A stretch of DNA of 64,000 bases, taken from Deuterostichococcus epilithicus (taxonomy: Eukaryota > Chlorophyta > Trebouxiophyceae > Prasiolales > Stichococcaceae). Below the pieces are notes generated by a model. The model had not been told where the DNA came from. It ran no database searches and saw only the letters and a program-made list of their open reading frames with translations. Location of the stretch: contig JAVTLE010000016.1 in the NCBI GenBank assembly GCA_033439295.1, forward strand, positions 2,480,001-2,544,000, in the 5' to 3' direction. Of the stretch, positions 24,612-51,878 are shown piece after piece. Numbering within the stretch: position 1 is the first letter of the stretch; every line of letters starts with the position of its first letter. The position numbers and the translations under genes were made by a program.

Positions 24612-27428
24612 ATGCTGCTGGTGGCGCTGCTGCTGACGGTCGCGTCCGTCGGCCAGCCGGCGGCGGCTGCCGGTGCTCTGGGCGTGAGGCACAGCGCCGC
24701 CCGGCAGCGGGTGTTCTCTTATGTGGAGCAGCAGGGCGCTGCGACAGCCAGTGAAGCAGCCGCAGCCGCAGCTCAGTCTGCGGCGCTGACAAGCCGCCGC
24801 AATGCCTCCTTCGGCAAGGCCGCGCTCACTGCCATGCCGACTGCAGCAAACAGCACGGCCGCCTCCATCAGCGTCGGCGGCGTGATTGCCGGTCCGGTGG
24901 TGGCCTCCGATGCCGCGCTGTCCCACCGTCACCCGCTGACGGTGGCAAACAGCGGCGGCGGCGCGGCGCCGGAGGGGNGCCGCAGCGACAGCGCCGCATG
25001 GGCAGCGCTGGCAGCCATGGACCCCACGGACGCTACTGCGCGGCAGCTGCTGGCGGTGGGCGGCGCTCGCGGCCGCACCCTTCTGGCGCAGGGCGTCAAT
25101 ACCATCGCCAGGTATTTGCGGCTGGTGGACTACCCTGAATTGGGCCTGCCGCGGGGCGCACACCACTTGCATGTCGCGGGCCTGCGGCGCTCTCCGGCGG
25201 GAGACGTGCACGGTGACACGTCCGTGTTGTTGGCCTGCTGCGGCCGCGCAGCCTTGGAGCGGTCAGCAGTCGGCGAGGCGGCATTGCGCCACATCCTGCA
25301 GGCCCTTCATGCGCCGGCAGACTCTGCACTGAGCTGCTGCGCGCCGGACGGCGGCAGGGGGCGCCGCTCACGGCTGCGAGAGGGCGTAAAGTAGGACCTG
25401 TCAGTTGCTGTTGCCGCCCTTGGCCAGCACAGGCCTGATAGTCTCCGTGCTTCCATGCCCCGCAGGGGTGGAGGCATTGAGCTGTACTCGCCGCTGCAGC
25501 GCATCAACCAGCTGCCCACGCAGTTCTTCCGCATCGACTTCCGCGGCCCGACAGACGAGCAGAACCCCATCTTCCTTTTCAATCTGACAGGCGCCGCCAG
25601 GTGGGGCACTTGATGCCCCGCAGGTTGCAGCATGCTCATGTCACACTGTGCCGAGCGCGGCCTGCAAGTCTGCCGCGCAGGCCCGATCGCCTTGCTCTGC
25701 TGGGTGCACATGCAAGCACGTCTGCTGGAGCTCTATGGCCCTCGCCCTTATGTTCCTGAGTGGTGCCCTGCTGCAGGATCAACGTGGTGTATGCCGTCAA
25801 CGAGGGCATCGTGTACATCAGTGCCGAGGCGCCGGACGCCGACAAGCGCGCCGATATGGTGCTGACCGTGGCCAGCGACGCCCAAGGTGCAGACACATTG
25901 CCGTTGCTGTCTTGCCGTCGCTGTCGTGCAGCATTCACGATCCGTCGCCTGGATCCTCCCCGAATTCGTTTTCGAATACTATTGCTGTTTCGTCAGTATT
26001 GCCGGCGAAGACATAGTGCATCACGATGTGCCATCTGCTCTCGGCCTGACTGCCTTAGCGTGCCGTGCCTGCAGGCCGTCCGCTGGAGCCCCCGCTGTCG
26101 ATCGACACCCACTTCGTGCCGCCCAACCCGGTGCTGCAGTTCTTCGGCAAGTTCACCGCGTTCTTCCTGCTGGCCATGTGCGCGCTCGGCGGCCTGCTGT
26201 CCGTCATAGGCAGCGGCGTCGGCGCCGGCGACATCGGCGCAGACGGCACCCCCACAGCAGGTGAGCGAAGCGCTGTTCGCATTCAGGCAGGTTTTCACAT
26301 CCGCATGCGTGTGAATGCGGGGACGCTGCAGCTTGGAGCTGCTGGACCACACCCATGGCCTGGTGCGGCAAGGACATGTGTCAGCGCTCATGCGGCCCCT
26401 TCCAGCACAGAGATGCTTGTACGCTCATCGCTCCTCCATCACGAATGCCCCATCGCATGTGATGTATGTGGTGCTTGCGAGTTTGAGGGCGGCATCCCCA
26501 TTCATTCAATCGTTTCATTCATGCAGCGGACCCGTCCGCCGGCGCACAAGCCGTCGGCCCGGCAGCGCACGCGGGCGGCGGCGGCGCCTTTGGCATCGGC
26601 ATCCTGGCCATGGTGCTGGGGGCGCAGACGCTGTACGTGGGCGTGTACATCCCGGGGGCACCGCCAAACTACAAGGACGTCAGCTCTGCGTTCAGCTTCT
26701 TCTCCGGCAACATCAGGTCTGTCCCTCCTCGTTTGTCGCTAGTGATCCAATTCCTGTGGAGAGGTTGAGGGAGGGGCAGAGGGGATTGGCCCGCTGGAGT
26801 TCAGATGCAGGCCGCCTGAGCCACGCCATTGTTCTCGTGTTGAATCGCGGCTGCTATGACTGAAAGGCATCGTATCCAGCTGTCAGCTGGAACCAGCTCG
26901 GAACCCATGACTAAGCAGTGCTGGCATCCGTGACTAATGTCTCGCCATGGCGATGGAGCCTTGGCGAGCCTTCCAGCTGCTTGTGTGCATCCCAGCTTCG
27001 ACACCATGTTTTGCTGCGCCTTGATGAGGCTTGTATAAGGCCGCGTGCAACTCCAATCGCAGCTTTGTCTGCGCCTGAGGCACGCCACAACGCCGCCTGG
27101 GGCTGCGCTGGCGCGCAGCAGCCCTCGTTTGCGGCCGGACGCTGATGGCACATCTGCTGCTGCGCAGGCAGCGCTGGCAAGCTACAGCGCTGGCAAGCTG
27201 CAGCGCTGGCAAGCTGGTGGCATATCGATAGCGCCCATATGCCCAACACGCTGCTCACAGCATACTTGTATGTCTGCAGGGTGCCGGCGTTCCAGAGTGC
27301 AGATGCGACGAACACGCCCATCACCCCTGGGGAAGACTCTGCCTTCGTCGACACCACGGGCTTCCGCGTGCCTGGGGTGCTCTTCGAGAGCGTTCTGCCC
27401 AACGGCACCATCTTCACGGAATTTCACC
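24612..27428 (+). other. N-terminal module of the giant gene: signal peptide, beta-type region, two hydrophobic helices
   Basis: Exons 24612-25111, 25466-25600, 25777-25886, 26075-26260, 26527-26716 and 27280-27428 join with agreeing phases. After the signal peptide and an Ala/Ser-rich region comes ARQLLAVGG, then a beta-type stretch (IELYSPLQRINQLPTQFFRI, INVVYAVNEGIVYISAEAP). Two hydrophobic segments follow (FTAFFLLAMCALGGLL and FGIGILAMVLGAQTLYVGVY). The last exon ends in phase 1 and joins the Thr/Ala/Pro repeat exon at 27926, which is the main reason for linking it to the downstream sequence. An N base lies near 24978. Confidence 0.65.
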
Positions 27429-30400
27429 GTGCGCCATGCTCCTCACCTCACTGCGGTGCAGCAGACCCCGGGAGATGCACACTGAGCTGCGCATGGTGCT
27501 GTGTGGCAACCCACGTGCTCATCAGCAGCCTGAGTCAGTGTCCAGCTGCTCAATTGCGAGTTTCCGCTGCTGCTGCGCACGCGGCCGCCCATGCCCCCGC
27601 CCATGCCCGGGGCCCCTTGTTTGTGTTGCCAGGCTGCTGACTGATGCTGAACGGACTGATGTGCAGCGTTCCCCATCACTTCGGACACGATGGCGACAAC
27701 ATCGGGCGTCACCCCAAGCACAGTCGGTGCGCGCAGAGCGACTTGCAAGTGCTATACTCATAGGACGCTGTGTTTGCCGGGCAACTGCACAGTGTGTACG
27801 TTTTTGCTTGCTGTCAGGGCTCTGCTAAGCAGCCGCACTCAGGCATTCATGTTGCATTGCGACCTGGATTCGACCATACTGATGATCGCTGTCCATGAGT
27901 GTGCCCCATTCTGCCCCGCCTGCAGCCGTCATCGAGGCGTCAGCAAATGCCACAGCGGCGCCCACAGGCGCCAGCACGGCGGCGCCCACAGTTGCCAGCA
28001 CGGCGGCGCCCACAGCGGATGTCACGGCAGCGCCCACAGCGGGTGTCACGGCAGCGCCCACAACAGACGCCACGGCGGCGCCCACAGGCGACAGCACAGC
28101 GGCGCCCACAGCGGATGCCACAGCAGCACCCACAACAGCCGCCACGGCAGCGCCCACAACAGACGCCACGGCAGCGCCCACAGGCGCCAGCATAGCAGCG
28201 CCCACAGCGGAAGCCACGGCAGCGCCCACAGCGGATGCCACGGCAGCGCCCACAGCGGATGCCACGGCAGCGCCCACAACAGACGCCACGGCAGCACCAA
28301 CAGCGGATGTCCCGGCAACGCCCACAACAGACGCCACGGCGGCGCCCACTGGCAATGTCACAGCATCGCCCACCGACAACGCCGCGCCGGCGCTCACTGA
28401 CAATATTACGTTGGCGCCAACAGCCGATGCCACTCTGGCGCCCACCAACGACTCGGCGCCGGTTCCCACAGGCAATGTCACGTCGGAACCGACTGTTGAC
28501 GCAACATCGGCGCCTACGCCCAATGCCACGACGGCGCCAACTGCAGCCGAAGCACCACCAGGCCAGACCGTCGCGCCAACGACTGCTGAGCCAAGCGTCG
28601 CAATGCCGCCGGCGGTGCAGCCGAGCATTGATCCCACGGCAGCACCGTCTGGCACGCAGACACTGGCACCGACCACCTCCTCACCTGCAGCGACGCCGAC
28701 GTCAGTTCCTGCCGGCACGCCGGCGCCGTCGGCGACGCCCGCTGGGTCGCCGCCCACACCGACACTGACTGACGCGCCTGCTGGCACCCCAACTGCGCAG
28801 CCATCTGTCGTGCCTACAGCCGGGCCAGCCGGCGATGTCCCGACACTGGCTCCCGCAGCGCCGACAGCAGGCCCGACTGCTGCTCCGACCGCCGTGCCTG
28901 CTGGCACGCCCACCGAACAACCAACTGCCGCCCCTGCGGCAGCTCCGACTGCGGGGCGCACAGCCGCCCCCATCGGCGTGCTGCCAACTGCTGCACCTAG
29001 CGAAGCTCAGACGCCTCAGCCGACCGCAGCGCCGTCGACAGCTCCGACGCTGCAACCGACAGCTGTGCCATCGGCGGCTCCGACTGCAGCGCCGATGTCG
29101 CAGCCGACAGAGACGCCCACCGCAGCGCCGACTGCAGCGCCAACGTCGCAGCCGACAGAGGCGCCCACCGCAGCGCCGACTGCAGCGCCAACGTCGCAGC
29201 CCACAGCCGCACCAACGGCCGCCCCGACAGCTGCACCAACACCTTCCCCTGTCCAGCGCACAACCAACGGTGGGCGCTTGGCCCCTGTTACAACCTGGTA
29301 TCGCATGTCTCTGCTGGCAGCCCTTGGCAACGCTGCTGTCAGCGGTCGCACTGGCACAGCGGCAGTTGGCTTTAAGGTGTGGGTAACAGGGAACTTGGGC
29401 AATGCCCGAGCTGGTAGGGCGACCTCCAGCGATGGCGCAAGATGTCGCATTCTGTGGTGCAATGATGGCCGCCGATTTTTTTTTTGGCAGGCCATCGCGC
29501 CAATCAGCCGCTCAGCGCCTGTCTTCAAAGCCTGCGCTCATGTCGCAACACTGTATACCCTCTGTCTGCAGGCCAGGTGCAGGGCGTCAACACGATCGGC
29601 AATGCCCTGCTCAACATGACGGCCACTGGCGCCGGCTTCAGTGGAAGGCGGAAGCTGCTGGCGGAGGACGACTTCCTGCTCTGCACCTCCACCGCCGCCG
29701 GCTGGGTCAACATTTCGGCGGCGACCCTGGACAATATCGAGTTCCAGTTCGAGGGTGACGGTGACAATAACGAGGACACCGGCTTCTTCTGGCTCAACGG
29801 GACTGCTGTCGCCATCCCGGCGGCAGCGGCGGCAACTGCTGCCCCGACTGGCGGCGCTGCTTTTTCCAGCGCACGCGTAGCAAGCACGGTTCCTGCGCCA
29901 ACCGCAGCGCCCACGGACCCGCCCTCGGCAGCGCCGTCAGCTGCTTCGACTGTACGCCACCTGGACCGCAGCGCAAGGTCTGCTGCCACGTCTGACAGCG
30001 GCTCCGGCGGTGACGGCAGCCCGCCAGCAGTGCAGCAGGTGACAGACCGGCCAACAACGCGTCCAACAGTGGCATCAACGCCGGAGCCAGTGGCTCAGCC
30101 GACAGGCCAGCCCATGCCCGAGCCGACAGCGGAGCCAACCCCCCAGCCAACGGCGCGGCCAACGGCCCAGCCAACGGCGGAGCCAACCCCCCCGCCGACA
30201 GCACGGCCAGCGGCCCAGCCAACGGCTGAGCCAACGCCCCGGCCGACGGCGCGGCCAACGGCCCGGCCGACGGCTCAGCCCACGCCGCAGCCGACGCGGC
30301 GGCGGGGACCGCCGCCGCCTTCCCCGCCGCCGCGCCCCCTCCGCGCCCACCGCCCAGCCCGCCGTCGCGGCCGCCCCCGTCGCCGCCAGCAGCCAACGGC

Positions 30401-33400
30401 GGCCCAAGCGCCCGGCGGTCGCTGCTGCAGGCTGCAAATCAGGTGTACACCTACACCATGCAGGGGTATGCTGCCGGCGGCCGGCCGCAGCTAGACCAGG
30501 TCAGCATGACGCTGTATGACGCATCAGGCGCCGTCGTCTGGAACTTCAGCGGTGCGCACCTGCCCCTTTCCTGCACGACATCGCACCGCAGTCCCTCTGA
30601 CAGTGCACTGCCAGCCGCAGGCAGCGACCGCTACTCGCTGCATGGCAACGAACACTTCCAGTTTGCGGCCCGTGATTGGTCTGGGGATAGGCTTGCAGAC
30701 GCTTTGAGCAGGAACCGAATTGAGGAGACGGTGAGGGGAAGTTTGAGGCTTGGGCTTGTGCTTACGAGCAGGGAACGGCACGGCAGGGTCCCCTGGCCTG
30801 GCCGTGCTGCGCCGACGCCGGGTGCCTGTGCCCCGGCCGCCGTCGCCGCCGCCGCTGCCGCCGGCTGAGCCTGTCCCCATGCCGTCCACACCGCCGGAGC
30901 CTGCACTCAGTCCGCCGCAAATGCCGCCCACACCGCCGCCGCAGCCGCCCCCAGCCTGCCGCCGCAGTCGCCGCCGCAGCCACCTCCCAGCCCGCCACCG
31001 CAGCCGCCCCAAGCCCGCCTCCGCCGCCGCCCCCAAACCCGCCACCCCAGCCTGCGCCACAGTTGCCGCAGCAGACGCCTGAGCAGCCCCCGCAGCAACC
31101 GCCGCAAGTTGTGCCATCTCCGCCGGGGCTGCCTCCACCTGCACCACCTCCACAGCCTCCTCCATCGCCACCACCGCAGCCACCACCCAGCCCGCCGCTG
31201 CAGCCTCCACCAGCACCCCCTCCTCCACCTCCACCTCCGCCTCAGCCACCGCCATCGCCACCGCTGCAGCCGCCACCTCAGCCTCCTCCATCGCAGCCAC
31301 CGCAGCTGCCAGTCAGCCCGCCGCCGCCGCCTCCACCAGCACCCCCTCCTCAACCTCCCCCCTCTCCGCCGCCGCAGCCTCCACCAGCATCCCCTCATCC
31401 ACCGCCTCCTCAGCCTCCACCACAGCCGCCGCCGGCGCCGCCTCCACAGCCGCCGCCCAGTCCGCCGCCGCCACCACCCCCAAGTCCACCTCCACACCCG
31501 CCGCCGCAGCCGCCGCCTCAGCCGCCTCCTCAGCCNCCACCNCAGCCCCCGCCGGCACCGCCTCCGCAGCCGCCGCCCAGTCCGCCGCCACAACCACCCC
31601 CAAGTCCACCTCCACAGCCGCCACCGGCAGCGCCCCCACAGCCTCCGCCGCAACCGCCTCCTCAGCCGCCGCCCAGTCCGCCGCCGCAACCACCCCCAGG
31701 TCCACCTCCACAACCGCCGCCACAGCCACCTCCTCAGCCTCCTCCATCACCNCCGCCGCAGCCACCGCCGTCGCCACCGCCTCAGCCGCCGCCGCAGCCT
31801 CCTCCATCGCCACCGCCGCAGCCGCCACCCGGCCCGCCGCCGCAGCCTCCACCGGCACCCCTCCTTCACCTCCGCCGCAACTGCCACCATTGCCACCGCN
31901 GCNGCCGCCGCCTCAGCCTCCTCCATCGCCGCCGCCGCAGCCGCCGCCTCAGCCTCCGCCATCGCCACCGCCGCAGCCGCCACCNCAGCCTCCGCCATCG
32001 CCGCNGCCGCAGCCGCCACNTCAGCCTCCTCCATCGCCGCCGCCGCAGCCGCCGCCTCAGCCTCCGCCATCGCCGCCGCCGCAACCGCCGCCTCAGCCTC
32101 CTCCGTCGCCGCCGCCGCAGCCGCCGCCTCAGCCTCCTCCATCGCCGCCGCCGCAGCCGCCGCCTCAGCCTCCTCCATCGCCGCCCCCTCAACCGCCGCC
32201 CAGCCCACCGCCGCAGCCGCCACCGGCGCCGCCGCCAAACTTTGGCCAGCCCGCCCTTGTTGGGCAAACCTCTCAGCCCCTCTCAGCTGAAGAAGGGTCA
32301 ATAAACCCTGTCATTAGCACCGCAGTCCAGCAGGTGATGACTTCAGCGTGTTGCTCCCGCTGCACCACATGGGGACCTCCTGTGCATGTCGTGTGAGCTG
32401 GCCCTTCATGCCTTTCATATACTCCATGCAGCTCGCTTGTGTCGTCTCTCAGCACAGCCTGTCCAAACGCGGAGGTTGCTCTGCTCTGTGAAGCGTACCA
32501 CTCGCCTCTTCCCCCGCAATGGGCTCGCACGTGAAAGCGCACGGCATCCCAGCGACTGCCTCATGAGTGGCGGCCACGGCTCTGCGCAGGTCTCGCATCA
32601 AACGGGTCCCGAAAGGCGGCGGAGCCTGCTGGACCTGCCGGAACACACACCCTTCGTTCCGGACACTATGCTGCTGACAAATGCCCAGCCGCGGCTGCCG
32701 GACCTCAAGGCGGTGGCATTCGACGATGTGCAGCTGGTCTCGACAGGGTGCGCGCGTCCCTTGAACCCTGCAGGTCCCCAGCAGCTGTGCGGTGCACGGC
32801 CTGTGCCACACATGGCGGGCTGTCTCGCTGCTCTGCCTTGCCTGCGTCTGCGCCGCCACGAGATGCAGGCTGCTGTGTGCGGCAGGAAGCTGTACTCGGA
32901 CTCATGATCCATTCATTGCCTGATCGTCTGAAGACAGCAGCGCATTTCGTCGCCAGCGCCATACACGATAATGCATGCCTGCGTGCCGCTGGGCGCTTCT
33001 GTGTTGGCGGCTGTGCCTCCTGGTTTAAGGGGCAACTCGCACGATTGCTGTCGTGCAGGCCTACTGGCGCCAGCATCAGCATCAGCGGTACCATGGTATA
33101 TGTGGGTGCGGATCCACTGCAGGAAGGCACTCAGTTCTACGCCTTCCAGCTGCGCATGGCAATTGGTGAGTGCACTTACTGAACCCTCTCTCGCCCCTAC
33201 TCTAGTTTGCAGGGGCAATGGCGCTACTGCTCGCTGGCAAGTTGCATGCAGATGGACAGGGGCCAGCGCGGCACGCTACATGTGTTTTGCCACGCTCCAC
33301 CTCAGCTTCACATCACTTGTATTTGACCAGTCAGTACGCTGGGCGAGGATATAAGACATCACATATGAACCTCACAAGTGCCAGCATCTGACGGTGTGTG

Positions 33401-42400: not shown

Positions 42401-45400
42401 CTCCATGCGCAGTGCGGCTACGTGCTGGCGCTGGATGGCGCGTCGTGCATCCCTGAGATAAGCCCCTCGGTCTGCACCAACTGTACATCAGACGGAGCCA
42501 CCTGTCAGACCTGCCCCTGCGGGTGCGAACTGCGCTCCCGCTGCCGCTGTATAGTAAATGCATTTATCAATGTGTGATTGCACATTGGGTACATGTCGGT
42601 TGCTCGACTGTCCGCTGGCATCCCGATCGCATGCCTTGGTAAGGTAATGCTGACAAACTGACGGCACATTCGCTTGCAGGTTGCTTCCGGGCGACGTGTT
42701 GTACGTTGATGCACACCGGTGCAAAATTCCAGCACCCACGATTGGCGGCGCGTACGACACTGTCTGCCACGAGTGAGAATTGCAACGCCAGGCGATTGCA
42801 GTGCCACTCCTGCACACGTGCTTCTGCCGTTCTGTGCTGGTCAGCATGGGCGCTGGCTCGAGCAAGGCCGGGGTGACTCGAGTCGCTGGCTGACGGCATC
42901 AACGATTTCATTTGGCGCACTTAGCACGTTGTCTTACATGACCTGCAAAGCCTTGTCTTCCTCTGTCTGGGCAGATCCTCTTCCACTGTCTGGCAAGAAC
43001 CTCCTCTAGCATTCGGCGCACTTCCTTGCGACGGTCTCTGCAGGCCCTCTTGTTGCGTGCACACGTGTAGCGGTTTGCAGGCCACAGCGGCGCCTCAATC
43101 AATGCCGCAGCCTACATGTCGCTGCTGTTGATGCCGCTGATGAGTGTGTCGTGCCCTGCTGCAGCTGCAACGTGACAAGCGGCCTCTGCAACAGTTGCGA
43201 TTGCGGCAGCGTCGTTGACGCTAAGGGCAGCGGCAAATCATGCACCTTCTCCGATTCCGAGAACACCTGCCCTGCCCCGCCTTGCTTGGCGGCCATTGTC
43301 GACCGGCCAGTCCTGGGAAAAGGCGGCCCCACCCATGGCCTCTTCCAACAAGTCGTCAGCTTCTCCCACCTGGCTCACGAAGCGGTGCGCAAGCGCATGC
43401 CGAACTCACGTTCTGAGAGTTTTCTGAGAGTTCTCTGGCGTGCCTGGGCATATGTGATCACGTCACCTGCCTGCGAATTGGAAGTGGCGGCGGCTGGGAG
43501 CGCAGCAGCGCGTCCGTACTGGCTGCCTGCAGGCCGATGAGCCCTGGCTCCAGGCGCTGCAACCTCAGCTCCTCCTCAAGTCAGCACCTCAGGAAACATC
43601 TGCATAGCAGTAAATTGGCTGATGCGCTGATGCGGACATCATGCAGGACCTCGTGGATGGCCAGTACACGCCCAAGCCGTCATACGCCAACCTGCAATCC
43701 CTGCTGGACTCCTCATCCAGCTTCGAACCGACCGTCACCTCGCGCATTGCAACGTCGGTGAGTGTGCAGCTTCCCTGGCATGCACACGGGAGAACCCGAG
43801 TGGGGCCGGGAGGAAGAGGGGGCGTGGAAGGACTCAAGGCGGGCAGGGCGCGCTGCACCTGGAGGTATCACCGGGTCCGTTGAAGTGCCGGTCAGGCAAC
43901 GTCACACCTAAAGGCAGCTGCGGACAGAGAACCACTGAACGTGGCAGTCCAAAGTCCAAAGTCTCAGTCCAAACACTGTAAGGCTAGCATGTTCGCCTGA
44001 GTGTTTGGTGCCTTCCCGCCCTCGCTGGCATGTGTGGCAGTGGCCGTCGTCGCTGTTACCTCTCGAATGACAGCCAGGCCCTGCATGAAGCGCAACCTCA
44101 AGTCTGCCCTGACGTGCGTCTGTGGCGCCATGCCGCCGGCAACCCAACAGGAGCAGAGCTTGGATGGTGCAGTGCCCCGGTCAGGAAGCGATGCCATCGT
44201 GGCGTGGCTTGCAGAGCGCCGGCAGCAGCATGCTGTCGGCGGTAGCGGGCGCGCTGCATGAACATCAAGCCTGCCTGTGCCAATCCTGCCTGTGCTTGCT
44301 CGCAGGTGGAGCTGCCATCAACCATCGGTGGCACCGCATGCGATGCAGATGACTGGACGCTGGGCTACGAGAGCTTTGGGCCACGGCAGCCCTTTTACAC
44401 TCGCCTTGACGGGTGCGGCCTGTGACGCCACACCCCAAACATGTCCACGCTGAAATGCCTCGCTTTTCTCATGCTCCTCCGCCATTACCCTGGCCATTGC
44501 TGGGAGACGTGTGGCAACCTAGCTGGTCAGTGGGTTCGCACTGCACACCTTCTGGCAGCAACACTCTTCCGCTGGAACGCTCATGTGTGATGGTGGATGC
44601 ACCTCCCATGCGCCCTGCGAGTTGCGCTCGTGATGTTATACTGCCCCTGAAACGCAGCTCTTGGCTTCAAGGCCCCACTCGGACTGATAATTAAAGCACA
44701 TGACGCAGGTACCTGTACCTGCCGACATTTCCGTCAGGGGACTGCTACAGCTGGCAGTTTGCGCTCAACCCCTTCCCTGGCAGCAACGAGCCTGTCGACG
44801 GTGGTTACCGCCTGACCATCGACGGCACGACTGCGCTCGAGTACGAAGGTGTGCGCAGCCTTGCACCTGGAGCAGTGTCGGCGGTGGCGGCGCCCAATGC
44901 CAGGCATCTGGCGGTGCAGAGTCTGCAGCATCAGAGCCCGCGTGTCGCATGGGGGGCGCTGCCCATCCAGCCGAATCGACTGGGGATTGAAAGTCCAGCT
45001 GCAGGCACATGCACTGGCTTGGCCGCCCCTGCCGCCCAGCCATCGCCTCCTCATGTGCTGGGGTGTTTCTGTCGCAGGCTTTGGCAGCCCGATTGGCTAT
45101 CAGACCTCTCTCTCAACGTACTACCTGGGAGGCGTAGCATACCCCATCACCGTGGATTACTGGAATGGGGTTCTGGGCACGCCTGCGTCCCTGGGGCTTC
45201 AATTCCGCGCGGCCCAGAACGAGCCCTGGGCATCCATTCCGACTGCCGCCCTGACTCCCTACCCGGTGCGGTCGCTGCCGTTAGCAGCTTGACACGAGAG
45301 GGTTTGCTGCCGGGAGTTCGTTGGCGCTGACAGGTCACTCTGCAGGGCTGCTCCATGCGAAGTGAAACCTGCTTCGGATACGGAGCTATATGGCTGCAGC

Positions 45401-48400
45401 GCCATTGCGGGGCATGTGCGCTTTAGAGGAGCGAGGCTATCGCCTGTGCACACCCATCTGACCAGATCTAGCCGGCGGCTATGGGTCGCGTGTTGCCAGC
45501 GCGATGCGTGTGGTGTTGTGTGCGCAGGTGCAGACCGGCACCGGCCCTGACATCAGCGGATACCCCGACACCCTAAAGTGCAACTATGCGCGCCGGCGCC
45601 TGCTGGCGTCTCCGCAATGGGCGCCGATGGTGGCGAGGGAGTCGCGCCTGTATGGTCAGCAGGGTGAAGCAGCGCTCGGGCCGCAGTCGCCAGTGGAGGC
45701 CGACCGGGGCGCTGGAGCACGCGCCTTGCACCAGGTGAGGTCAGCTGCCGGCAGCCGCGTGCGCGGCCAGCGCCTACGCCAGCAGGGGGATCCATAAGAG
45801 GAACAAAATCAGGAGGGAGGAGAAAAGGGAACGAAGCGGAAGGGCCGTCTCTGGACACCTACAGCGCCAACTGCAACCAGCTCCATGCCCAGAGGGGTGA
45901 CCCTCCACAAGGGCAGCTGGCTTGCAGACTTGCAGTGTGCGACAAGTCTTGTGTCCTCTCGACCAAAAGCCATTGTCATCTGACCTTGCAGGCGGAGGCA
46001 TCAGCCACCGCCTCGCCATCAGCGTCAGCCGCAATGGCGCCGCCGGTGCGTAGGCATCTCCAGAGCACCTCAAATATTATGCAGTGTGCTGCCCTGGTAC
46101 TGTCTCCTTGTACCTGGCACACCAAACCACATCGTGACCTGCATACGGGGATATGTCAGAGCTTTGCCGGCTGCCAGCACCCTGCACGCTCGAGCGACCT
46201 GGCAGACAGGCGCACAGCGTGACAACCTGCTGGTTCCAGCAACCTGCTGCTGCCTGGCAGAGCCTGGCAGAGCCTCTGCTGGAGTCCGCCTGAACCCTTA
46301 ACCCAGAAACGACCGACCAAGCAGTGCCATTCCTGCGCTGCTGCCTAGGACGTGGTGACCATCCAGAGCCTGAACATCAATGCCACCGTGCCGACGTACC
46401 CGCACAAGACGTACGTGGTGCTGACGGCGGTGCCCAACACGACCACGAACAACCTCACGATTGTGCGGGAGCCGACCGCAGCGGCTGCTCCCGCGCCGTC
46501 AGGTGCGAAAAACCCTGCTGCGGCAGCGATCTCCTGCACAGCCTCCCCTGGAGCTGGATCGGGTGCCGCACACACACTATGGCACCTTGCCATCCCCATC
46601 ACCTTGGACTGCTTTGGTTGCAAGCCTCGTCTGATCGTGCTGGGCCGCTTGCCAGGGCTGTGGCAGAGTGCACTGCGCCGTCAGCAAACGACTTCCCTGC
46701 AGGGCAAGATCGACAGGGCGCACGGGTGTCCCACAGTGCGCATCCCCTCCGCTGAGTTTCTCACAGCCTGCGCCCTCCACCCCGAGTTTGCGGTTTGACG
46801 TCCTGCCTCCACCCTTTCCGCAGCCGGCGGCGGGGTCGGCAGCATTGCCGACAGCGAGACGGCGCAGAACATTGGCGCCAACGCCCTGAACGCCGTCGGC
46901 GACCTGCTCAACGTCTTCAATAGCACCGCCACCAGCGTCTTTCTAGCGAAGTGCGTTCTCAGGCGGACAGGATTTTGGCTTGCATGATTCGATTCACAAC
47001 CAAGGCGCAGCCGTCAACCTCGTGTTGCGGATTTGATCATGTGCTGAAACGGAGGGCAGCATGCTCTGACCATGTCGCTGAGTGACGCGACCGTCCCGGC
47101 TGCTGGGCATGCCCGGCGGTCAGCCGTTATCTCTGCGGCTACTTTTGACTGACATGCACGTGCCGCCTACACAGGGCGGCTCGCATCGCCTTCTGGGCGG
47201 CGGTGCTCGTGGCGGTGACTGTCGTGCTGCACGTGGGCCTGATCCTCATGTGCCGGTGCTTCGGCCGCCACCCGCCAGCGCTACTGGAGTTCCCGCGCCT
47301 TGAGCTGTTCCTGTTCATGTTCATGGTGCGGCTTGTTCGCCTTTGCATCCCGCTGCGGAGGCAGCAGGTGCAAAGTGATGGCCAGCTTGCCTCCCAGCAC
47401 GAAATTCTGGCAGGCGATGAGCTTTTGCTGTTCTTGCACTGGACCCTGATGGATGGCGCTGAGCTGCTTGCTGTCTGCCGCCAGGTTGTTGCATTCATGG
47501 CTGTCACGTCAACAATCTCTGCATGATGGCGTGCAGGTCCAGCCAATCGCCCAGCTAGCGGCACGTGAGCGCTTTCAGCAAGTTTCCGATTTTGCCTGCC
47601 TGCTCATTGCTTATAGCCGCTATTGTCAAGCCGCCACACGCATCCTGAAATTTGTGCAAGTGCAGTGATGATGCCAATGTCGCCCCTCCAATGTCGCCCC
47701 TCCTGCCTCTGTCGCTCGAGCTTCGGGTATGCCAGAGCGGTATGCCAGAGCGACATCTCAACAGCCAGCATCTGTGTGCCACAGAGCTCATCGCGTCGGG
47801 CGACCGCCGCGCCATGATCGGCGGCTGGTGCATCTTCGTGTTCGGCTGCGTCGGTTTCCTCTCCCTGTGCGCCTACATCGTCTACAAGAGCGTGCACCGC
47901 CACGACACCCGCAAGGCTCGCTGGGTGCTGCCCGCCATGGAGGAGCCCGAGGTGCTGCTCGATCCTGACACATGCCAGCGGACAGTGTGCATGAGCAACG
48001 GCGCTTCACAGACCGCGTCTCTGCTCCCTGCGCCTTGTGGACGTGCAGACGGGCGCGATGCAACCTGGCTGTGGTATAGCCACAGTGGTACAGCCGCGTA
48101 GATGTGTGGTGCAGCCGCGACGCTGCCTGCCTCCCGGCTTTTGTTTGAATTTTGGCCACACACCAAAACCACGATCTGCCGCAGGGCCGCACCTGGTGGT
48201 TCCTGCGGGTGTGGGACCGGCTGGTGGCTCGGCCGCTGGCGGGCAAGCCGCTGCCCGAGGCGGAGTGGGTTACTGTCGGCGAGCACGCGCAGCTGCGCTT
48301 CATCCAGCGCCACGGCGTGCTGTTCGAGGACAATCGCGGCAAGTCACGCCAGATGCTGTGCCGTCTGGTTTCAGATGTCTCTGCTGCAGACGCTCTCTGC

Positions 48401-51400
48401 AAGGCAGCCACGGCTCCTGCCGCCGCTCAAGTCTTCACCTGACCTGTGCCTCCTGCGCCTTGGAAGCTCACGTTCTTATGACCCCAGGCGGCCGCCCTTG
48501 ACAACAGTCAGTCTTTGAGTGGAGGGTCGTTGGTACCACTGACATCCCGACATCTCACTGCAGGGCCGCCCTACCGCTTCATTGCGGCCACAGAGGAGAA
48601 CACTCCCTCGCAGTCCGAGTCCTCGTTCTCAGACAACCCCAAGCGCGCCGTCGCGACCGAGGAGAGCCTGCACTCCGACGCTGGCCAGCGGCCCGCCGCA
48701 CAGGCGGCGCCTGCCGCGCAGCTGGCGCCGGCGGGCGACCACGAGGTCCCCGACGCAACAATCGCGGAGCTGGCCGGCATGTCTGTCCGGCAGGTGCAGG
48801 ACATGCCTGCCAGCGAGCGGCGGGAGTGGCGGCAGCACTACGCGTTGCTGCACGGCGACGGCGACGCCCCGGCCGGCAGCCCGCCGCACAGGCGGCACCT
48901 GCCGCGCAGCCGCCGCAGCCGGCGGCTCAGCAGGTGGGCGACCACGAGGTCCCCGATGCGACGATTGCGGAGCTGGCCGGCATGTCCGTCAGGCAGGTGC
49001 AGGACATGCCCGCCATTGAGCGGCGGGAGTGGTCGCAGCACTACACGTCGCTGGACGGCGGCGACGCTGCAGCGCAGGCCGAGCGCCTGGACCCTTCGCT
49101 TCGCACGGCGCACCTCTTTGCTGGCGGCGCTGGTGGCACGACCGGCGACGGCGGCCGGAGCGACGGCGCCACCACCCCCGCGTCTTCCGCGGCCACCGCC
49201 AGACCAACTCGCCCCAAGGACCTGTGAGTCCCCCTTTGGCCGACCCGCTTCTTTAGCACCCTTGTCCGATGCCGGATGTACCAGCCCTGCAAAAGGTCCC
49301 TCTGCCTGGCTCCTGCACCTGGGTGCATTCACTGGCAACACCCACCGTGGCAAGGATCGTTTGAGCGCAGGACGGAGGCCACCCTTGAGGTGCGGAATGC
49401 GTTCCGTTGCCACATGCCGCCACAAACGCTCTGTTGCATGCCGTTTTCGGCCTGCCGACAGTTTCATAAGGAGCACGTCCTCCTAGAGGCGCCCATGACT
49501 GTGAATCCTGAAAGCCTGGGGCCCCACACACCTGCAGGGATGCTGTGGAGCCGGTCCACAGGCCGCGGCTGCTCAGGGTGGGCGACGTGCATGTGGGAGC
49601 CGCCGAGTTGCGCACCTATGCGACAATACTGTTCATCGCCAAGACGCTGGTCGTCGGCTACGTCCTGGTGTCGCTGTCGACCAAGGGCGGCATTGCTGGG
49701 GTGCGCCCGCGTTTACTCTTGCTCCTCACCTTGCACCCCTTGCCCCCCGCTTGTCTTCCCGTTTTGAGTCCTGCACCTCCAGAATCATGAGCACATGCCC
49801 CATGCCATCCAAGCCGTCCGCCAGCGCTGCCTTTCGCCCCAGCCCGTGCAGTCAGTCGGTCCTTTGCACAATGACGCTGCTGCACGCATCTGAGAAGGGT
49901 CCTGCTCCGGGAGCATCAAATGATGATGATCGTCACATGCCGAGATGCGCGAACATCGCACGCTCGCAGGTGGTGACAATCACCATCCTTGCGGTGTTCT
50001 GGCTGGCGTACATCCGCATCCTGCTGCCGATGTCGGACCGACTGGAGCAGGCGCGGCCAGTTTTTGCTTCGCTGCATCTGACAGAACCGTCCAGCGTTCA
50101 TGTGGCCAATGTCTGTGTCTAGCAGGGCGTGACCAGCACTGTGTTCGGCCAGCACATCAGATTTTTCAGCCGATGCGGCAGGCCGGCGTTCTACTGCGCC
50201 TGCTGTCAAGTCCTTCTGGCAGCAACCATACAAGGAAGCAGACGGCTGCCAAGCAGGAGACAGCATGACGGACAATGCCATGCAGTCTCAACATTGGTGT
50301 CCCACAGCTCGCAAGCTGAGGGCAGAATGTCCCTGCGCCGCAGGGGCTGGAGGTCTGCGGCGGCATTGGCGACGCGATCACCTTTGGCTGCGCGCTGGCG
50401 CTGGTGGCCTCTCCGGTCTCCAGTGTGGACTACAGCCTCATCGTCGGCAACTTGATGATCGCCAGCCAGGTGCACAGCTGCTCCTCACTTGTCGGCCGCA
50501 TTCCTCGATGGCGTGTGTTGCACATATGTCACAGCACGGCACTGCCATTCTATGCGGAGTAGCAGTGGACGAAGGATCCTCTCAAACCCGCCTCGCAACC
50601 ATTGAACAGCCCCTCGTCCTTCCATTCAGCTGCCATGCCAGCCGTTGCTGTGCCAGCTGCAACGCCTCTTGCCGCCCTTGACCGTTCAACTGTTTGTCCT
50701 GCGCTGCCATGGCCCGCGCTTCGTCCAGGCGAAATCACGCGCCCAGCGGTCACATCATGCTTCGCAGGGCGCCGCCATCTGGCTTTACATCGTCAGTCGG
50801 CCCTTCGCCTGGTGGCCCAGCGTCCAGATGTCGGTGCTGCCGCGCATGCGCTTCCTGTCGATGGGCGTGCGGGTGCTCCGGGGCTCCGGCCAGCGGGCCA
50901 ACTCCGGCGGCGACGGCGGCGTGGCCGCCATCCTGGCGGCCGCCAACGCCAGCGGCGCCTTTGCGGGTAGCACCGCGCCGTCAGGGGGCAGCAGCAGGAC
51001 CACAGGTCAGCCGCCCCTGGGCGCCGACAAGAGTGGCTCCATGGGCAGGTTGGTGCGCGGCCTGTCGCTCGCAAACCAGAAGCAGCACCCTGGCCGCGCC
51101 GGCGTTGCAGGCGGCGGCACCGCCGCCGGCGTCGGCAGGCTCAGCCCCTTCGCCGCGGCTGCGGCGGACCGCGGCGAGATCGGCGCCCACGGCGCCGTTG
51201 CTGCAGCAGCCCCGCTCGGGGCCCGCGACCCGCGGGCGGCGTCCCGCGGCCGCTGGCCGTCCTTTATGCGGGGCTCGCTGTCCTTCTTCGACCGCCAGGC
51301 GGCCGGCGACGGCGGCGACGGCGGCGCAGCAGGAACAAGCCGGCAGCGCGGCGCGGCGGGCGGCCTCGGCGCGGTCGCCGCGGAGCTCGCGTTCNGGNGT

Positions 51401-51878
51401 GNCGGCAGGACGCGCAGCGGAGGCCAGTCGGGGCAACCCGCGCTGCCGGTGTCGACGCCGCCGCTGCGCATGCCGGGCGACCGCCGCAACAGCATCGCAC
51501 TGCCGGTGCTGGACGAGGGCACCGAGGTGTGTGGAAGCCGAGACCTTTTTCCTTTTCTGTAGCGGCGAGTTCCGGGGAGAAGTTCGCTCACTCCATCATT
51601 GCGATGCTCCCCACCACAGGGAGGACCCTAGCAGGAGAGGATAGCCGGACAGTTGACTGCAAGCAGATTTTCCTGTCATACTTGCAGCAGATGGCCCTGC
51701 AGCGCTGGCCGCTGCGCTGGAGCAGCCAGCCCCCACATTGCTGCCGGCTCTGCACTGTGCATTGGCTGCTGCCCACAGTTTGCGCCCTGCCCACCTGCAG
51801 GATGCGCGGCTGGACATTGCAGAGTCGCCGCGTGAGCAGGCGCTTGCACTGGACCGCCGCGGCTCAGCGCCGATGTAG
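24612..51878 (+). CDS. Giant multidomain surface protein: signal peptide, stalks, CxxC cassettes, two PA14-like domains, polytopic membrane C-terminus
   Basis: I join this region as one gene because exon phases agree across most junctions and no alternative start with a signal peptide appears before 51878. Order: signal peptide (MLLVALLLTVASVG), beta-type segment, two hydrophobic helices, 8-residue Thr/Ala/Pro repeat, RR-LL modules, Pro-rich stalk, two near-identical beta/CxxC cassettes, second Pro-rich stalk, third cassette, PA14-like domain, CxxC modules, second PA14-like domain, six or seven membrane helices with a large loop, cytoplasmic-type tail (stop 51876-51878). This suggests a receptor, adhesin or mechanosensitive channel of the cell surface. 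The last part is faintly like TRP-type polytopic proteins. Phase continuity is lost inside the Pro-rich tracts (30.3, 30.8-32.2, 36 kb), which contain N bases, so it may be two or three genes. Function is not established. Confidence 0.5.
27926..29270 (+). repeat. Coding minisatellite: 8-residue Thr/Ala/Pro repeat, then 12-residue Pro/Thr repeat
   Basis: The exon 27926-29413 is in phase with the exon before it. It begins with more than a dozen 24-base units of the type DATAAPT(T/A/G) to about 28370. Then come looser Ala/Pro/Thr/Ser sequence and about three 12-residue units (APTAAPTSQPTE) near 29110-29215. Such TP/AP/SP sequence is typical of heavily O-glycosylated, hydroxylated extracellular stalks. 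The reading frame stays open across the whole array, so the repeats are under coding constraint. Confidence 0.8.
29572..30700 (+). other. RR-LL modules between the Thr-rich and Pro-rich stalks
   Basis: The exon at 29572 reads GQVQGVNTIGNALLNMTATG, then GRRKLLAED and a beta-type acidic stretch (LDNIEFQFEGDGDNNEDTG), then a PT-rich linker to about 30300. A second module begins ARRSLLQAANQVYTYTMQGY near 30412 and splices at 30566 into NFSGSDRYSLHGNEHFQF. The two modules are in different frames, with no credible intron between them. Either a short indel lies in the Pro-rich run at 30300-30400 or the assembly is wrong there. Confidence 0.5.
30800..32240 (+). repeat. Pro-rich stalk, (PPQPPPSPP)-type repeat
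   Basis: About 1.4 kb of CCN-rich DNA encodes PPQPPPSPP-like repeats, the sequence class that is hydroxylated and arabinosylated in algal and plant wall glycoproteins. N bases occur near 31533, 31541, 31751, 31900-31903 and 31985-32020, and more than one frame stays open because of the codon skew, so exact length and frame are unreliable. It ends in PPPAPPPNFGQPALVGQT. Confidence 0.7.
32241..34121 (+). repeat. Tandem cassette A (1.88-kb unit with introns)
   Basis: Exons encode, in order: NFGQPALVGQT to TAVQQ; RRRSLLDLPEHTPFVPDTML; a beta-type exon starting GPTGASISISGTMV; DADGGSTFNMTV to GLTYYPFGVDFSNIDTCIP; GVFFCAACSTRTDTCSECQ spliced to CGYILDSSSKLCYLDP; then PEPPAYP and a short Pro-rich run. 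Phases agree throughout. The CxxC-x(n)-CxxCxCGY pattern resembles EGF/furin-like Cys-rich repeats. Cassette B follows at an offset of 1880-1881 bases. Confidence 0.7.
34122..35935 (+). repeat. Tandem cassette B (copy of cassette A)
   Basis: This repeats cassette A exon for exon: DFGQPALVGQT, RRRSLLGLGFLPLEHTPFVP, GPTGGASVSISGTM, DADGGLTFDIEV to GLTYYPFGADFSDIDTCIP, the same GVFFCAACSTRTDTCSECQ exon and CGHILDPFSNLCYPDP. Introns are also clearly similar, for example the bases after the CxxC exon in both copies. The duplication is therefore segmental and fairly recent, with amino-acid changes already present. Confidence 0.7.
35936..36800 (+). repeat. Second Pro-rich stalk
   Basis: This is PPQPPPQPPP-type sequence like the 30.8-32.2 kb stalk, with sub-repeats of about 90-150 bases (for instance CCACTGCCGCCGCCGGCACC recurs). 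N bases lie near 36402 and 36426. Several frames stay open, so the frame is uncertain. It ends in PPPPIPTVIGTNHLLNSDSS. Confidence 0.6.
36801..39060 (+). other. Third, diverged beta/CxxC cassette
   Basis: Recognisable exon pieces are RRRLLAAEVPPLFTVIGAYD (about 37090), VTITP, NDDNPGVFAANVAFAGTLSL (about 37560), ADTYDITI to GDGLRFYPNGTNFEGLLPAC (37930-38125) and GVFNCLECAADVRVCSACQ spliced to CGFTL (38260-38335). Then come DPYGDICIPDTSPSACTMCW (about 38605) and YALNPGAVTPSCYLPD (38980-39050). Order and key residues match cassettes A and B, but the sequence is much more diverged. Confidence 0.55.
39327..42770 (+). other. First PA14-like domain with flanking CxxC modules
   Basis: A CxxC exon (ACEVCNPDGSCSTCACGY) splices in phase to DYGLQDEVYDWASLKAQYDG. 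Exon 40367-40464 ends QFYWAKFTG and joins in phase to YVYLPPRTGEG, giving the FxGYxYxP pattern of PA14 domains. Next come RRWFAAPVAQQPAGVHI and SGWHPIKVEYYRG (exon ending at 41649), the PA14 strand motif before the ligand-binding face. Two more CxxC exons (FPNCLACDAASACVVCK, CGYVLALDGASCIP) lead to LLPGDVLYVDAHRCKIPAP. PA14 domains commonly bind glycans on adhesins and glycosidases. Binding here is untested. Confidence 0.6.
43165..45265 (+). other. Second CxxC plus PA14-like domain
   Basis: The CxxC exon at about 43165 (CNVTSGLCNSCDCG) joins in phase to the previous VCHE exon. Exons 43647-43757, 44306-44412, 44709-44848 and 45078-45265 join in phase and read FYTRLDG|YLYLPTFPSGD, VDGGYRLTIDG and YPITVDYWNG with WASIPTAAL. 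These are the same landmarks as the first PA14-like domain. The intron between FxG and Yx(Y)LP has the same phase and the same GACGCAG acceptor in both copies, so one arose from the other by duplication. Confidence 0.65.
45528..46502 (+). other. Membrane-proximal linker with RRRLL motif
   Basis: Exons 45528-45734, 45992-46045 and 46349-46502 join in phase. The first contains CNYARRRLLASPQW, followed by a charged linker. The second is Ala/Ser-rich. The third is a beta-type stretch (VVTIQSLNINATVPTYPH, KTYVVLTAVPNTTTNNLTIV) with several N-glycosylation sequons. It ends in phase 1 and joins the exon at 46824. Confidence 0.6.
46824..51878 (+). other. Polytopic membrane domain and tail of the giant gene
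   Basis: Exons 46824-46950, 47175-47325, 47537-47564, 47785-47951, 48185-48338, 48564-about 49223, 49538-49700, 49970-50050, 50344-50469, 50768-51526 and 51801-51878 join with agreeing phases, apart from a frame problem inside the fifth-to-sixth loop. Hydrophobic segments: IAFWAAVLVAVTVVLHVGLI, WCIFVFGCVGFLSLCAYIVY, TYATILFIAKTLVVGYVL, TITILAVFWLAYIRILL, AITFGCALALVASP, YSLIVGNLMIAS and AAIWLYIVSRPFAWW. The first four are strong helices. A large polar loop separates helices 2 and 3. A Gly/Ala/Ser/Arg-rich tail of about 240 residues follows, with N bases at 51395-51402. A TRP-like or transporter-like fold is possible but not shown. Intron 48339-48563 has a GC donor. Confidence 0.6.
48714..49085 (+). 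repeat. Duplicated 40-residue motif in the large loop, copies out of frame
   Basis: Two copies of GDHEVPDATIAELAGMSVRQ and the following QDMPxxERREWxQHY start 203 bases apart (GACC at 48737 and at 48940). Because 203 is not a multiple of three, the copies lie in different frames. The text after the second copy (LDPSLRTAHLFAGGAGG, RPTRPKDL) joins the next exon in phase. Either a small intron removes the spacer or there is an indel. Confidence 0.7.

What the first reader, a model, noticed from the sequence alone, without database searches (positions are those of the whole stretch)
24612..51878. Apparent 27-kb giant surface gene combining stalks, CxxC cassettes, PA14-like domains and a polytopic membrane domain
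Seen: a signal peptide, then a chain of exons with matching phases through glycoprotein-type repeats, beta/CxxC cassettes and two PA14-like domains into several membrane helices and a long tail. Known: PA14 domains are carbohydrate-binding modules of adhesins. Inference: a cell-surface sensor or adhesin whose extracellular rod passes wall-type ligand contact to a membrane channel or receptor. I know no described algal protein with this exact order.
Basis: partly seen in the sequence, partly recalled or inferred. Interest (0 to 1): 0.9.

Follow-up and report, generated by a model that had tools for sequence, protein, structure and literature searches.

The report
Giant looped algal surface membrane protein
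One very long gene, probably from a green alga, encodes a membrane protein of about 3,700 amino acids whose huge outer part, with rods and probable sugar-binding domains, is a loop tied to the membrane at both ends, a layout that could let the cell feel its wall.

Summary
The 24,612-51,878 chain is very probably one gene. Six other loci of this genome carry the same front module (cadherin-like beta domain, TM2; TM1 matched in five of the six) and back module (TM3-TM9), in the same order on one strand. Four of these other copies show purifying selection (dN/dS 0.20-0.27).

Mucin, proline rods, CxxC cassettes and PA14-like pair therefore form a loop of about 2,600 residues between TM2 and TM3, anchored at both ends, not a free rod. 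The window copy has the longest loop (TM2-TM3 gap 20.5 kb against 2.6-8.6 kb) and the only PA14-like pair found.

PA14 is supported but below Pfam's cut-off (19.1 bits against 24). The membrane domain matched no Pfam family or PDB chain. TRP-type surface proteins with Hyp-rich domains are described for Chlamydomonas, so I call it a new variant of a known kind. Best guess: a wall-tethered sensor in which pull or glycan contact on the loop moves TM2 against TM3. Channel activity is not shown.

The parts
24612..24672 (+). Signal peptide exon (MLLVALLLTVASVGQPAAAA)
   Evidence: Gene model; first 19 residues hydrophobic
24847..25219 (+). Low-complexity N-terminal segment; 3' end of this exon uncertain
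   Evidence: (m01) only C matches well (E 1e-5), D at E 0.02 out of order
25466..25886 (+). Cadherin-like beta domain (exons 25466-25600 and 25777-25886)
   Evidence: Found at 7 of 7 loci; profile against PDB best hit cadherin-17, E 0.0027
26075..26260 (+). TM1 exon
   Evidence: Hydropathy; exon matched at 6 of 7 loci, the seventh (G) has a hydrophobic stretch at that place
26527..26716 (+). TM2 exon, ending in APPNYKD...FSGNIR
   Evidence: 7 of 7 loci
27280..27428 (+). Conserved extracellular segment after TM2
   Evidence: 7 of 7 loci
27926..29269 (+). APT/AAPT mucin-type repeat, one open frame, 24-nt period
29572..30551 (+). Beta modules 2 (29572-29754) and 3 (within 30291-30551)
   Evidence: 6 of 7 loci
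30772..32258 (+). Proline rod 1 (PPPQ/PPPS); frame switches inside, bases uncertain
   Evidence: N bases
32286..35994 (+). Two tandem copies of a beta + CxxC + LCxGY cassette (32286-34117 and 34164-35994)
   Evidence: Direct repeats 1,874-1,880 bp apart; cassette also in copies D and E
36044..36812 (+). Proline rod 2, frame uncertain
37115..38123 (+). Beta modules 5-7, the last a diverged cassette beta domain
   Evidence: alignment with the cassettes, 34% identity
38264..38340 (+). CxxC module (GVFNCLECAADVRVCSACQCGF), cut short by the gene model; 3' end uncertain
   Evidence: Translated match to the loop of copy B (QGMWGCASCPSDPFTCTSCQCGW), E about 1e-6
39327..39498 (+). CxxC module (CEVCNPDGSCSTCACGY...LC...C..PPC)
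   Evidence: Read by eye; open, with splice-like ends
39784..41649 (+). PA14-like repeat a (5 exons, exon 41201-41252 doubtful)
   Evidence: 32% identical to repeat b over the aligned part, E 9e-6
42215..43384 (+). Further CxxC modules between the PA14-like repeats
   Evidence: Read by eye; open, with splice-like ends
43647..45265 (+). PA14-like repeat b (4 exons)
   Evidence: Pfam PA14 E 0.0012, 19.1 bits, below cut-off; two-copy profile hits the RsgI3 structure, E 0.0036
46349..46950 (+). Conserved extracellular segment before TM3 (PHKTYVVLTAV ... LNAVGDLLNVF)
   Evidence: 6 of 7 loci
47175..47951 (+). TM3, TM4, TM5
   Evidence: 7 of 7 loci; hydropathy
48185..49223 (+). Large cytosolic loop with conserved core (GKP.PEAEW ... 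LRF.(E/Q)RHG.LF.DN.GP)
   Evidence: Core at 7 of 7 loci; 19 of 44 core positions invariant in the seven rows
49538..50469 (+). TM6, TM7, TM8 and the start of TM9
   Evidence: 7 of 7 loci
50768..51526 (+). Rest of TM9 and cytosolic tail with WPSFMRxxxSFFDRQ
   Evidence: TM8-9 module matched at 7 of 7; tail motif at 5 of 7 loci
51801..51878 (+). Last exon and stop codon

Best explanation
It is one gene for a plasma-membrane protein of about 3,700 residues with nine membrane helices. SUPPORTED by sequence: a signal peptide, a cadherin-like beta domain, TM1 and TM2; then an ectodomain of about 2,600 residues (mucin, proline rods, beta/CxxC cassettes, PA14-like pair); then TM3-TM9, a large cytosolic loop and a tail, on a framework shared by at least seven genes of this genome. 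INFERRED: the plasma membrane as its place; the proline and mucin parts become glycosylated rods embedded in the wall; the PA14-like pair holds a wall polysaccharide. Because the loop is anchored at both ends, tension or glycan binding on it acts across the TM2-TM3 pair and changes the state of the membrane domain. The conserved cytosolic loop and the WPSFMR...SFFDRQ tail carry the signal inward, most likely through ion (Ca2+) passage as proposed for algal TRP-type surface proteins. The seven copies keep the transducer and vary the ectodomain, so each would read a different surface cue.
For: Seven loci with front and back modules in the same order and strand (all 29, 46 and 45 matches fall in these seven; the tool calls its counts lower bounds). 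Translated fragments of the seven loops match each other on the same strand only, and 24 kb of neighbouring window DNA matches none of them (plus-frame queries only, many matches are in mucin repeats). dN/dS 0.20-0.27 in four pairwise comparisons among copies C, D, E and F, 545-548 codons each (W, B and G not tested). 29 of 43 comparable introns at the same place and phase. Hydropathy windows, merged by me, give nine helices; 22 of 23 N-glycosylation sequons fall on the predicted outside, where length alone predicts about 18. The PA14-pair profile has one PDB hit, RsgI3; RsgI3 uses a tandem PA14 pair as an extracytoplasmic pectin-binding sensing module (PMC4711584, passages). PMC6704257 (passages) says many C. 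reinhardtii TRP-family surface proteins carry extracellular Hyp-rich domains that may transduce wall stress.
Against: None of the seven framework proteins matches a Pfam family at E up to 10, with HMMER's filters on; no match of PF06011 in this genome (absence not shown); no membrane-domain match in PDB better than E 2.5. So nothing identifies a pore. The short TM8-TM9 loop does not look like a classical TRP pore loop (my reading). The positive-inside rule is met only in part: K+R near the helices are 3, 6 and 3 in the TM3-4 loop, TM5-6 loop and tail, but 0 in the TM1-2 loop and 1 in the TM7-8 loop, against 2, 2, 1 and 0 outside. PA14 is below Pfam's cut-off. No transcript, protein or localisation data.
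Confidence: 0.45

Rival explanations
1. Passive wall-to-membrane anchor or adhesin: the nine helices only hold the loop in the membrane, and the rods and PA14-like pair attach the cell to its wall, a surface or a partner, without signalling.
For: Mucin, proline rods and PA14 domains are typical of adhesins (established knowledge); no known channel or receptor family is detected.
Against: An anchor needs one helix, not nine. The membrane modules and the cytosolic core are matched at 7 of 7 loci, with 19 of 44 core positions invariant in the seven rows, while the ectodomain varies freely.
Confidence: 0.25
2. Ligand receptor without a pore: glycan binding on the loop changes the cytosolic loop and tail, which recruit signalling proteins.
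For: Cytosolic core matched at 7 of 7 loci and a tail motif at 5 of 7.
Against: No kinase, G-protein or other signalling domain found (raw frames; framework proteins; the whole tail of the spliced model was not scanned).
Confidence: 0.18
3. Two or more separate genes, split inside the proline tracts, or a nested gene holding the PA14-like pair.
For: The free two-strand model splits the region into three plus-strand pieces (24599-30865, 32668-35447, 37403-51875) and puts three minus-strand genes into the proline tracts; frames are broken in the tracts; the 39.8-45.3 kb block has no match elsewhere in the genome.
Against: Front and back modules are paired at 7 of 7 loci; conserved segments lie directly after TM2 and before TM3; cassettes between them are shared with copies D and E, and a CxxC module with B. 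The free model's last piece begins MALCTWRAGVNDDNPG, by eye not a signal peptide.
Confidence: 0.08
4. The ectodomain is cut during maturation at repeated RR(R/K/S)LL sites, so that rods and PA14-like pair are shed or held non-covalently. This could be true together with the main reading.
For: 11 such motifs in seven model proteins (W 4, C 3, F 2, B 1, E 1, D and G none) against 0.22 expected from 2,000 shuffles, maximum 3.
Against: That such motifs are processing sites in algae is recalled, not tested; two of seven model proteins have none.
Confidence: 0.2

Closest known systems
Chlamydomonas TRP-family surface proteins with extracellular Hyp-rich domains, and SRCR/lectin TRP-type proteins, as described in PMC6704257 (passages)
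   Same: Algal polytopic membrane protein with proline-rich and probable sugar-binding extracellular parts; proposed wall sensing.
   Different: No TRP profile match here; PA14-like pair and CxxC cassettes; their sequences and loop positions could not be compared.
Fungal TRP-like / FLC / Pkd2 family (Pfam PF06011)
   Same: N-terminal beta domain then a polytopic domain; short motifs (PPNF...GN after TM2, FLERHGxLFED before TM6) remind me of it from memory.
   Different: No HMMER match; beta domain looks cadherin-like rather than ML; giant loop between TM2 and TM3.
RsgI3 of Clostridium thermocellum
   Same: Tandem PA14 pair as outer sensing part of a membrane sensor (PMC4711584); only PDB hit of the PA14-pair profile.
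   Different: Bacterial anti-sigma factor, one membrane helix (recalled), no rods or cassettes.
Polycystin-1
   Same: Very large ectodomain on a polytopic membrane domain, 11 helices (abstract start of PMC9672506 in the listing).
   Different: Ectodomain is an N-terminal antenna (recalled), not an inter-helix loop; no sequence match.
Yeast Wsc1/Mid2 wall sensors
   Same: O-mannosylated stalk that stretches like a spring under wall stress (PMC6704257, passage).
   Different: Single-helix proteins.

Membership tests
PA14 domain (Pfam PF07691) | Pfam score at or above 24 bits | tested here: not met
   Copy b 19.1 bits, E 0.0012 in context, 15.3 bits alone, copy a none; the genome-wide family search does not list the window's copies
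PA14 domain (Pfam PF07691) | Similarity to a solved PA14 structure by profile | tested here: met
   Two-copy profile: single PDB hit RsgI3 (6qe7), E 0.0036 for the whole chain, 0.02 for the best stretch; weak
PA14 domain (Pfam PF07691) | PA14 beta-sandwich fold and glycan binding | not testable with these tools
   Spliced proteins do not meet the structure predictor's stated rule; no assay
TRP-like / FLC (Pfam PF06011) | Match to the TRP profile | tested here: not met
   0 matches in the genome at E 10 (nothing rang in the controls either, so absence is not shown); 0 of 7 framework proteins
TRP-like / FLC (Pfam PF06011) | N-terminal ML or TRP_N beta domain (PMC10732042, passages) | tested here: inconclusive
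   A beta-type domain is there, but Pfam gives no match and PDB suggests cadherin-like
TRP-like / FLC (Pfam PF06011) | Ion conduction | not testable with these tools
   Needs electrophysiology
Cadherin repeat | Pfam cadherin match | tested here: not met
   No Pfam match for the domain alone or the 7 proteins
Cadherin repeat | Profile similarity to solved cadherins | tested here: inconclusive
   Cadherin-17 best hit in three searches: E 0.61, 0.0036, 0.0027; single stretches only 8-10 bits; next hits are FN3 and Ig proteins and photosystem subunit PsaI; a hint at the fold only
Polycystin | PKD channel, PLAT or GPS domains | tested here: not met
   No such Pfam match in raw frames or spliced framework
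   None for the modules alone; in context only TerY_C E 0.14, Haemadin 0.2, cEGF 2.2
Hyp-rich cell-wall glycoprotein | Long PPPQ/PPPS and APT repeats | tested here: met
   58% proline over 460 residues of tract 1 in the hinted model; hydroxylation not testable

The most novel reading that the evidence does not exclude
A family of loop-tethered membrane transducers: one conserved nine-helix core in which the inserted TM2-TM3 loop grows, duplicates and takes in new binding domains, up to about 2,600 residues, so that wall force or glycan contact is applied across two neighbouring helices. The window copy would be a glycan-gated (PA14-pair) channel that senses the cell's own wall.
Probability: 0.2. 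Interest if true: 0.85.

Novelty: new variant of a known kind. Interest (0 to 1): 0.55.

Why it matters
[quoted passage not shown] This family gives concrete candidates, with a testable geometry (both ends of the rod in the membrane, across TM2 and TM3) and natural variants: seven copies with the same core and TM2-TM3 gaps from 2.6 to 20.5 kb. It also shows a polytopic membrane protein evolving by change of a giant loop, with a PA14-like pair in one copy only.

Tried and rejected
Pfam on the raw three frames gave only three noise hits (DUF6136 E 0.17, N1221 0.3, JHY 0.12); exons are short. A first self-trained gene finder collapsed into tiny exons and was replaced by one with a realistic intron cost. 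Its splice-site weights also took in sites from the 24-52 kb region, so it is not wholly independent of it. The free model also fused the end of copy D with the start of copy C, so joins made by the gene finder are not evidence by themselves, nor is the forced one-gene score. Pfam TRP in the genome: no match. Relatives of the framework in viral contigs and in GTDB genomes: 35 and 120 pattern hits, none confirmed; the PA14-like pair in GTDB: 11 pattern hits, none confirmed, so no bacterial source was found; those scans use two short patterns each and can miss distant relatives. PDB search with the cassette profile gave only weak hits (E 0.3 or more) to p300/CBP fragments and an antibody. Hits that I left out as chance or out of order: PA14a in C (25%, E 0.04), beta 6 in D (E 0.03, lies after TM3), CxxC in F (E 0.03, before beta 2), CxxC2 in E (E 0.03), N-terminal segment in D (E 0.02). 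The match of beta 7 in D (E 0.01) lies at the D cassette and fits a cassette origin. A 'helix' in a CxxC module is taken as a hydropathy artefact.

Caveats: the final 56-exon, 3,733-residue model used peptide hints that I chose by eye; an earlier hinted model had a wrong-frame hint and was discarded. It still cuts short the CxxC exon at 38264. Exons within the proline tracts are not reliable. Framework rows of copies C-G in alignment A1 were put together by hand from model exons and tblastn pieces and are incomplete (most for G). Copy models for the intron comparison were unhinted and poor for C and F (3 of 8 and 3 of 9). In some searches the first BLAST command carried an option that tblastn appears not to take, and the script's fallback without it gave the results. 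The names of neighbouring genes are my reading, not searched.

Full report
What is there. I trained a small two-strand gene finder on this genome (seed of 21 protein-kinase exons, counted; final training). It recovers neighbours that look, by my reading, like a lipase, a short-chain dehydrogenase, a phosphoglycerate mutase and an amidohydrolase. Left free, it gives three plus-strand pieces (24599-30865, 32668-35447, 37403-51875) and three minus-strand genes in the proline tracts.

One gene or several. The deciding evidence is outside the window. The front module (25466-27428) finds 29 places in the genome and the back module (46.8-50.9 kb) finds 46. All of them fall into seven loci, each with front then back on one strand: the window copy W; B, C and D at 2.62-2.67 Mb and E at 0.27-0.28 Mb on the same contig; F on C1; G on C11. 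A search with the most diverged copy adds no locus (45 of 45 matches in the seven). The tool calls its counts lower bounds, so seven is a minimum. In a module table (best hit per locus, E up to 0.05) the cadherin-like domain, TM2, the post-TM2 segment and each TM3-TM9 module are at 7 of 7 loci; TM1, beta 2, beta 3 and the two segments before TM3 at 6 of 7; the tail motif at 5 of 7; the beta/CxxC cassette at 3 of 7 (W, D, E). A CxxC module is also in B: the loop of B and W 38261 match each other (E about 1e-6), and both read as CxxC...CxxCxCG. PA14-like repeats are in W only, leaving out one hit of 25% identity and E 0.04 in C. The TM2-TM3 gap is 20,457 bp in W and 8,312, 6,505, 8,558, 8,574, 6,765 and 2,567 bp in B-G. 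Translated fragments of these gaps match each other on the same strand only, and 24 kb of neighbouring window DNA matches none. That test used plus-frame fragments, and many matches are mucin repeats. G shares almost nothing in its gap: one match from D, one from F, one to D.

Selection and introns. Over 545-548 codons of framework and beta modules, four pairs (C/E, C/F, E/F, C/D) have dN/dS of 0.22, 0.27, 0.25 and 0.20, with most changes at third positions. W, B and G were not tested this way. Of W introns that fall in alignable blocks, 29 of 43 comparisons have the intron at the same place and phase in the other copy (B 9 of 10, C 3 of 8, D 9 of 11, E 3 of 3, F 3 of 9, G 2 of 2).

Topology. 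Hydropathy on the spliced W model (3,733 residues) gives 15 windows, which I merge to a signal peptide, helices near residues 255, 312, 2945, 2981, 3011, 3340, 3367, 3417 and 3446, and one false peak in a CxxC module. With a signal peptide, the N-terminal domain is outside, TM1 and TM2 form a hairpin, and residues 331 to about 2944 are outside. The mucin, rods, cassettes and PA14-like pair lie there, as they must. 22 of 23 N-glycosylation sequons are on the predicted outside (about 18 expected by length). The charge rule fits only in part: the TM3-4 loop, TM5-6 loop and tail are positive, but the TM1-2 loop has no K or R near the helix. So the ectodomain is a loop with both ends in the membrane. 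This is the main correction to the finding.

Domains. The N-terminal beta domain (alignment A3, 7 copies) hits cadherin-17 best in PDB (E 0.0027, two stretches of about 9 bits), then FN3 and Ig proteins at E 0.38 and above; Pfam gives nothing. The two PA14-like repeats are 32% identical over the aligned part (E 9e-6). Copy b scores 19.1 bits against a cut-off of 24, and the pair's profile has one PDB hit, RsgI3 (E 0.0036). The pair has no other match in this genome (9 of 9 matches in the window). The Pfam PA14 family itself has 12 matches elsewhere in the genome, none in contig C14; that search also misses the window's own copies. The CxxC modules match no Pfam family. Cassettes 1 and 2 are a tandem DNA duplication. 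The membrane domain has no match to Pfam (0 of 7 members), to PF06011 in the genome or, below E 2.5, to PDB.

How it may work. PMC6704257 (passages) states that many C. reinhardtii TRP-family surface proteins have extracellular Hyp-rich domains that may transduce wall stress, and that five SRCR proteins are TRP-type channels. PMC4711584 (passages) states that RsgI3's tandem PA14 motifs bind pectin and form its extracytoplasmic sensing module. Joined with the anatomy, the best reading is a wall-tethered sensor in which force or glycan contact on the loop acts across TM2 and TM3. The tether and the nine-helix core follow from sequence; glycan binding, gating and ion passage are inferred. Motifs such as FLERHGxLFED before TM6 and PPNF...GN after TM2 remind me of fungal TRP-like proteins, but that is recall and the profile test failed.

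Novelty. Eight paper searches showed me no algal protein of this domain order; I saw capped listings (titles and abstract starts), one search returned no paper, and the library holds open-licence papers only. I read passages of three papers (PMC4711584, PMC10732042, PMC6704257). Because the general kind, algal surface TRP-type proteins with Hyp-rich domains, is in print, I rate it a new variant of a known kind. The both-ends-anchored giant loop and the copy-specific PA14-like pair are the surprising parts.

Noticed in passing
W model residues 875, 952, 1458, 2778; also copies B, C, E, F: Dibasic RR(R/K/S)LL motifs in the predicted outer part, several just before modules: 11 in seven model proteins against 0.22 expected in shuffles. 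Possible maturation sites; meaning not tested.
   Followed up: partly
G000:C14:2625682-2673072 (L045-L050): Three copies (D and C on plus, B on minus) lie in one cluster about 94-141 kb beyond the end of the window copy; C and B are tail to tail.
   Followed up: partly
48564-49223: In the cytosolic loop a segment (RQVQDMPAxERREWxQHY) occurs twice in the W model; other copies have one related-looking segment (DSQRHEYLQHYGSQ).
   Followed up: no
G000:C10:367872-372081 (L006, L008): Five PA14 matches spaced about 1,000 bp apart in a separate locus, and another PA14 match in an open frame of 4,428 residues at C10:122224: other possible giant PA14 proteins in this genome.
   Followed up: no
31536-32020 and 36402-36426: 10 of the window's 21 single N bases fall in the two proline tracts, where the frame also breaks: probable assembly weakness.
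   Followed up: partly
38261-38340: A CxxC module that the gene model cuts to 20 bases is matched in the loop of copy B, so CxxC modules occur in at least four of the seven copies.
   Followed up: yes
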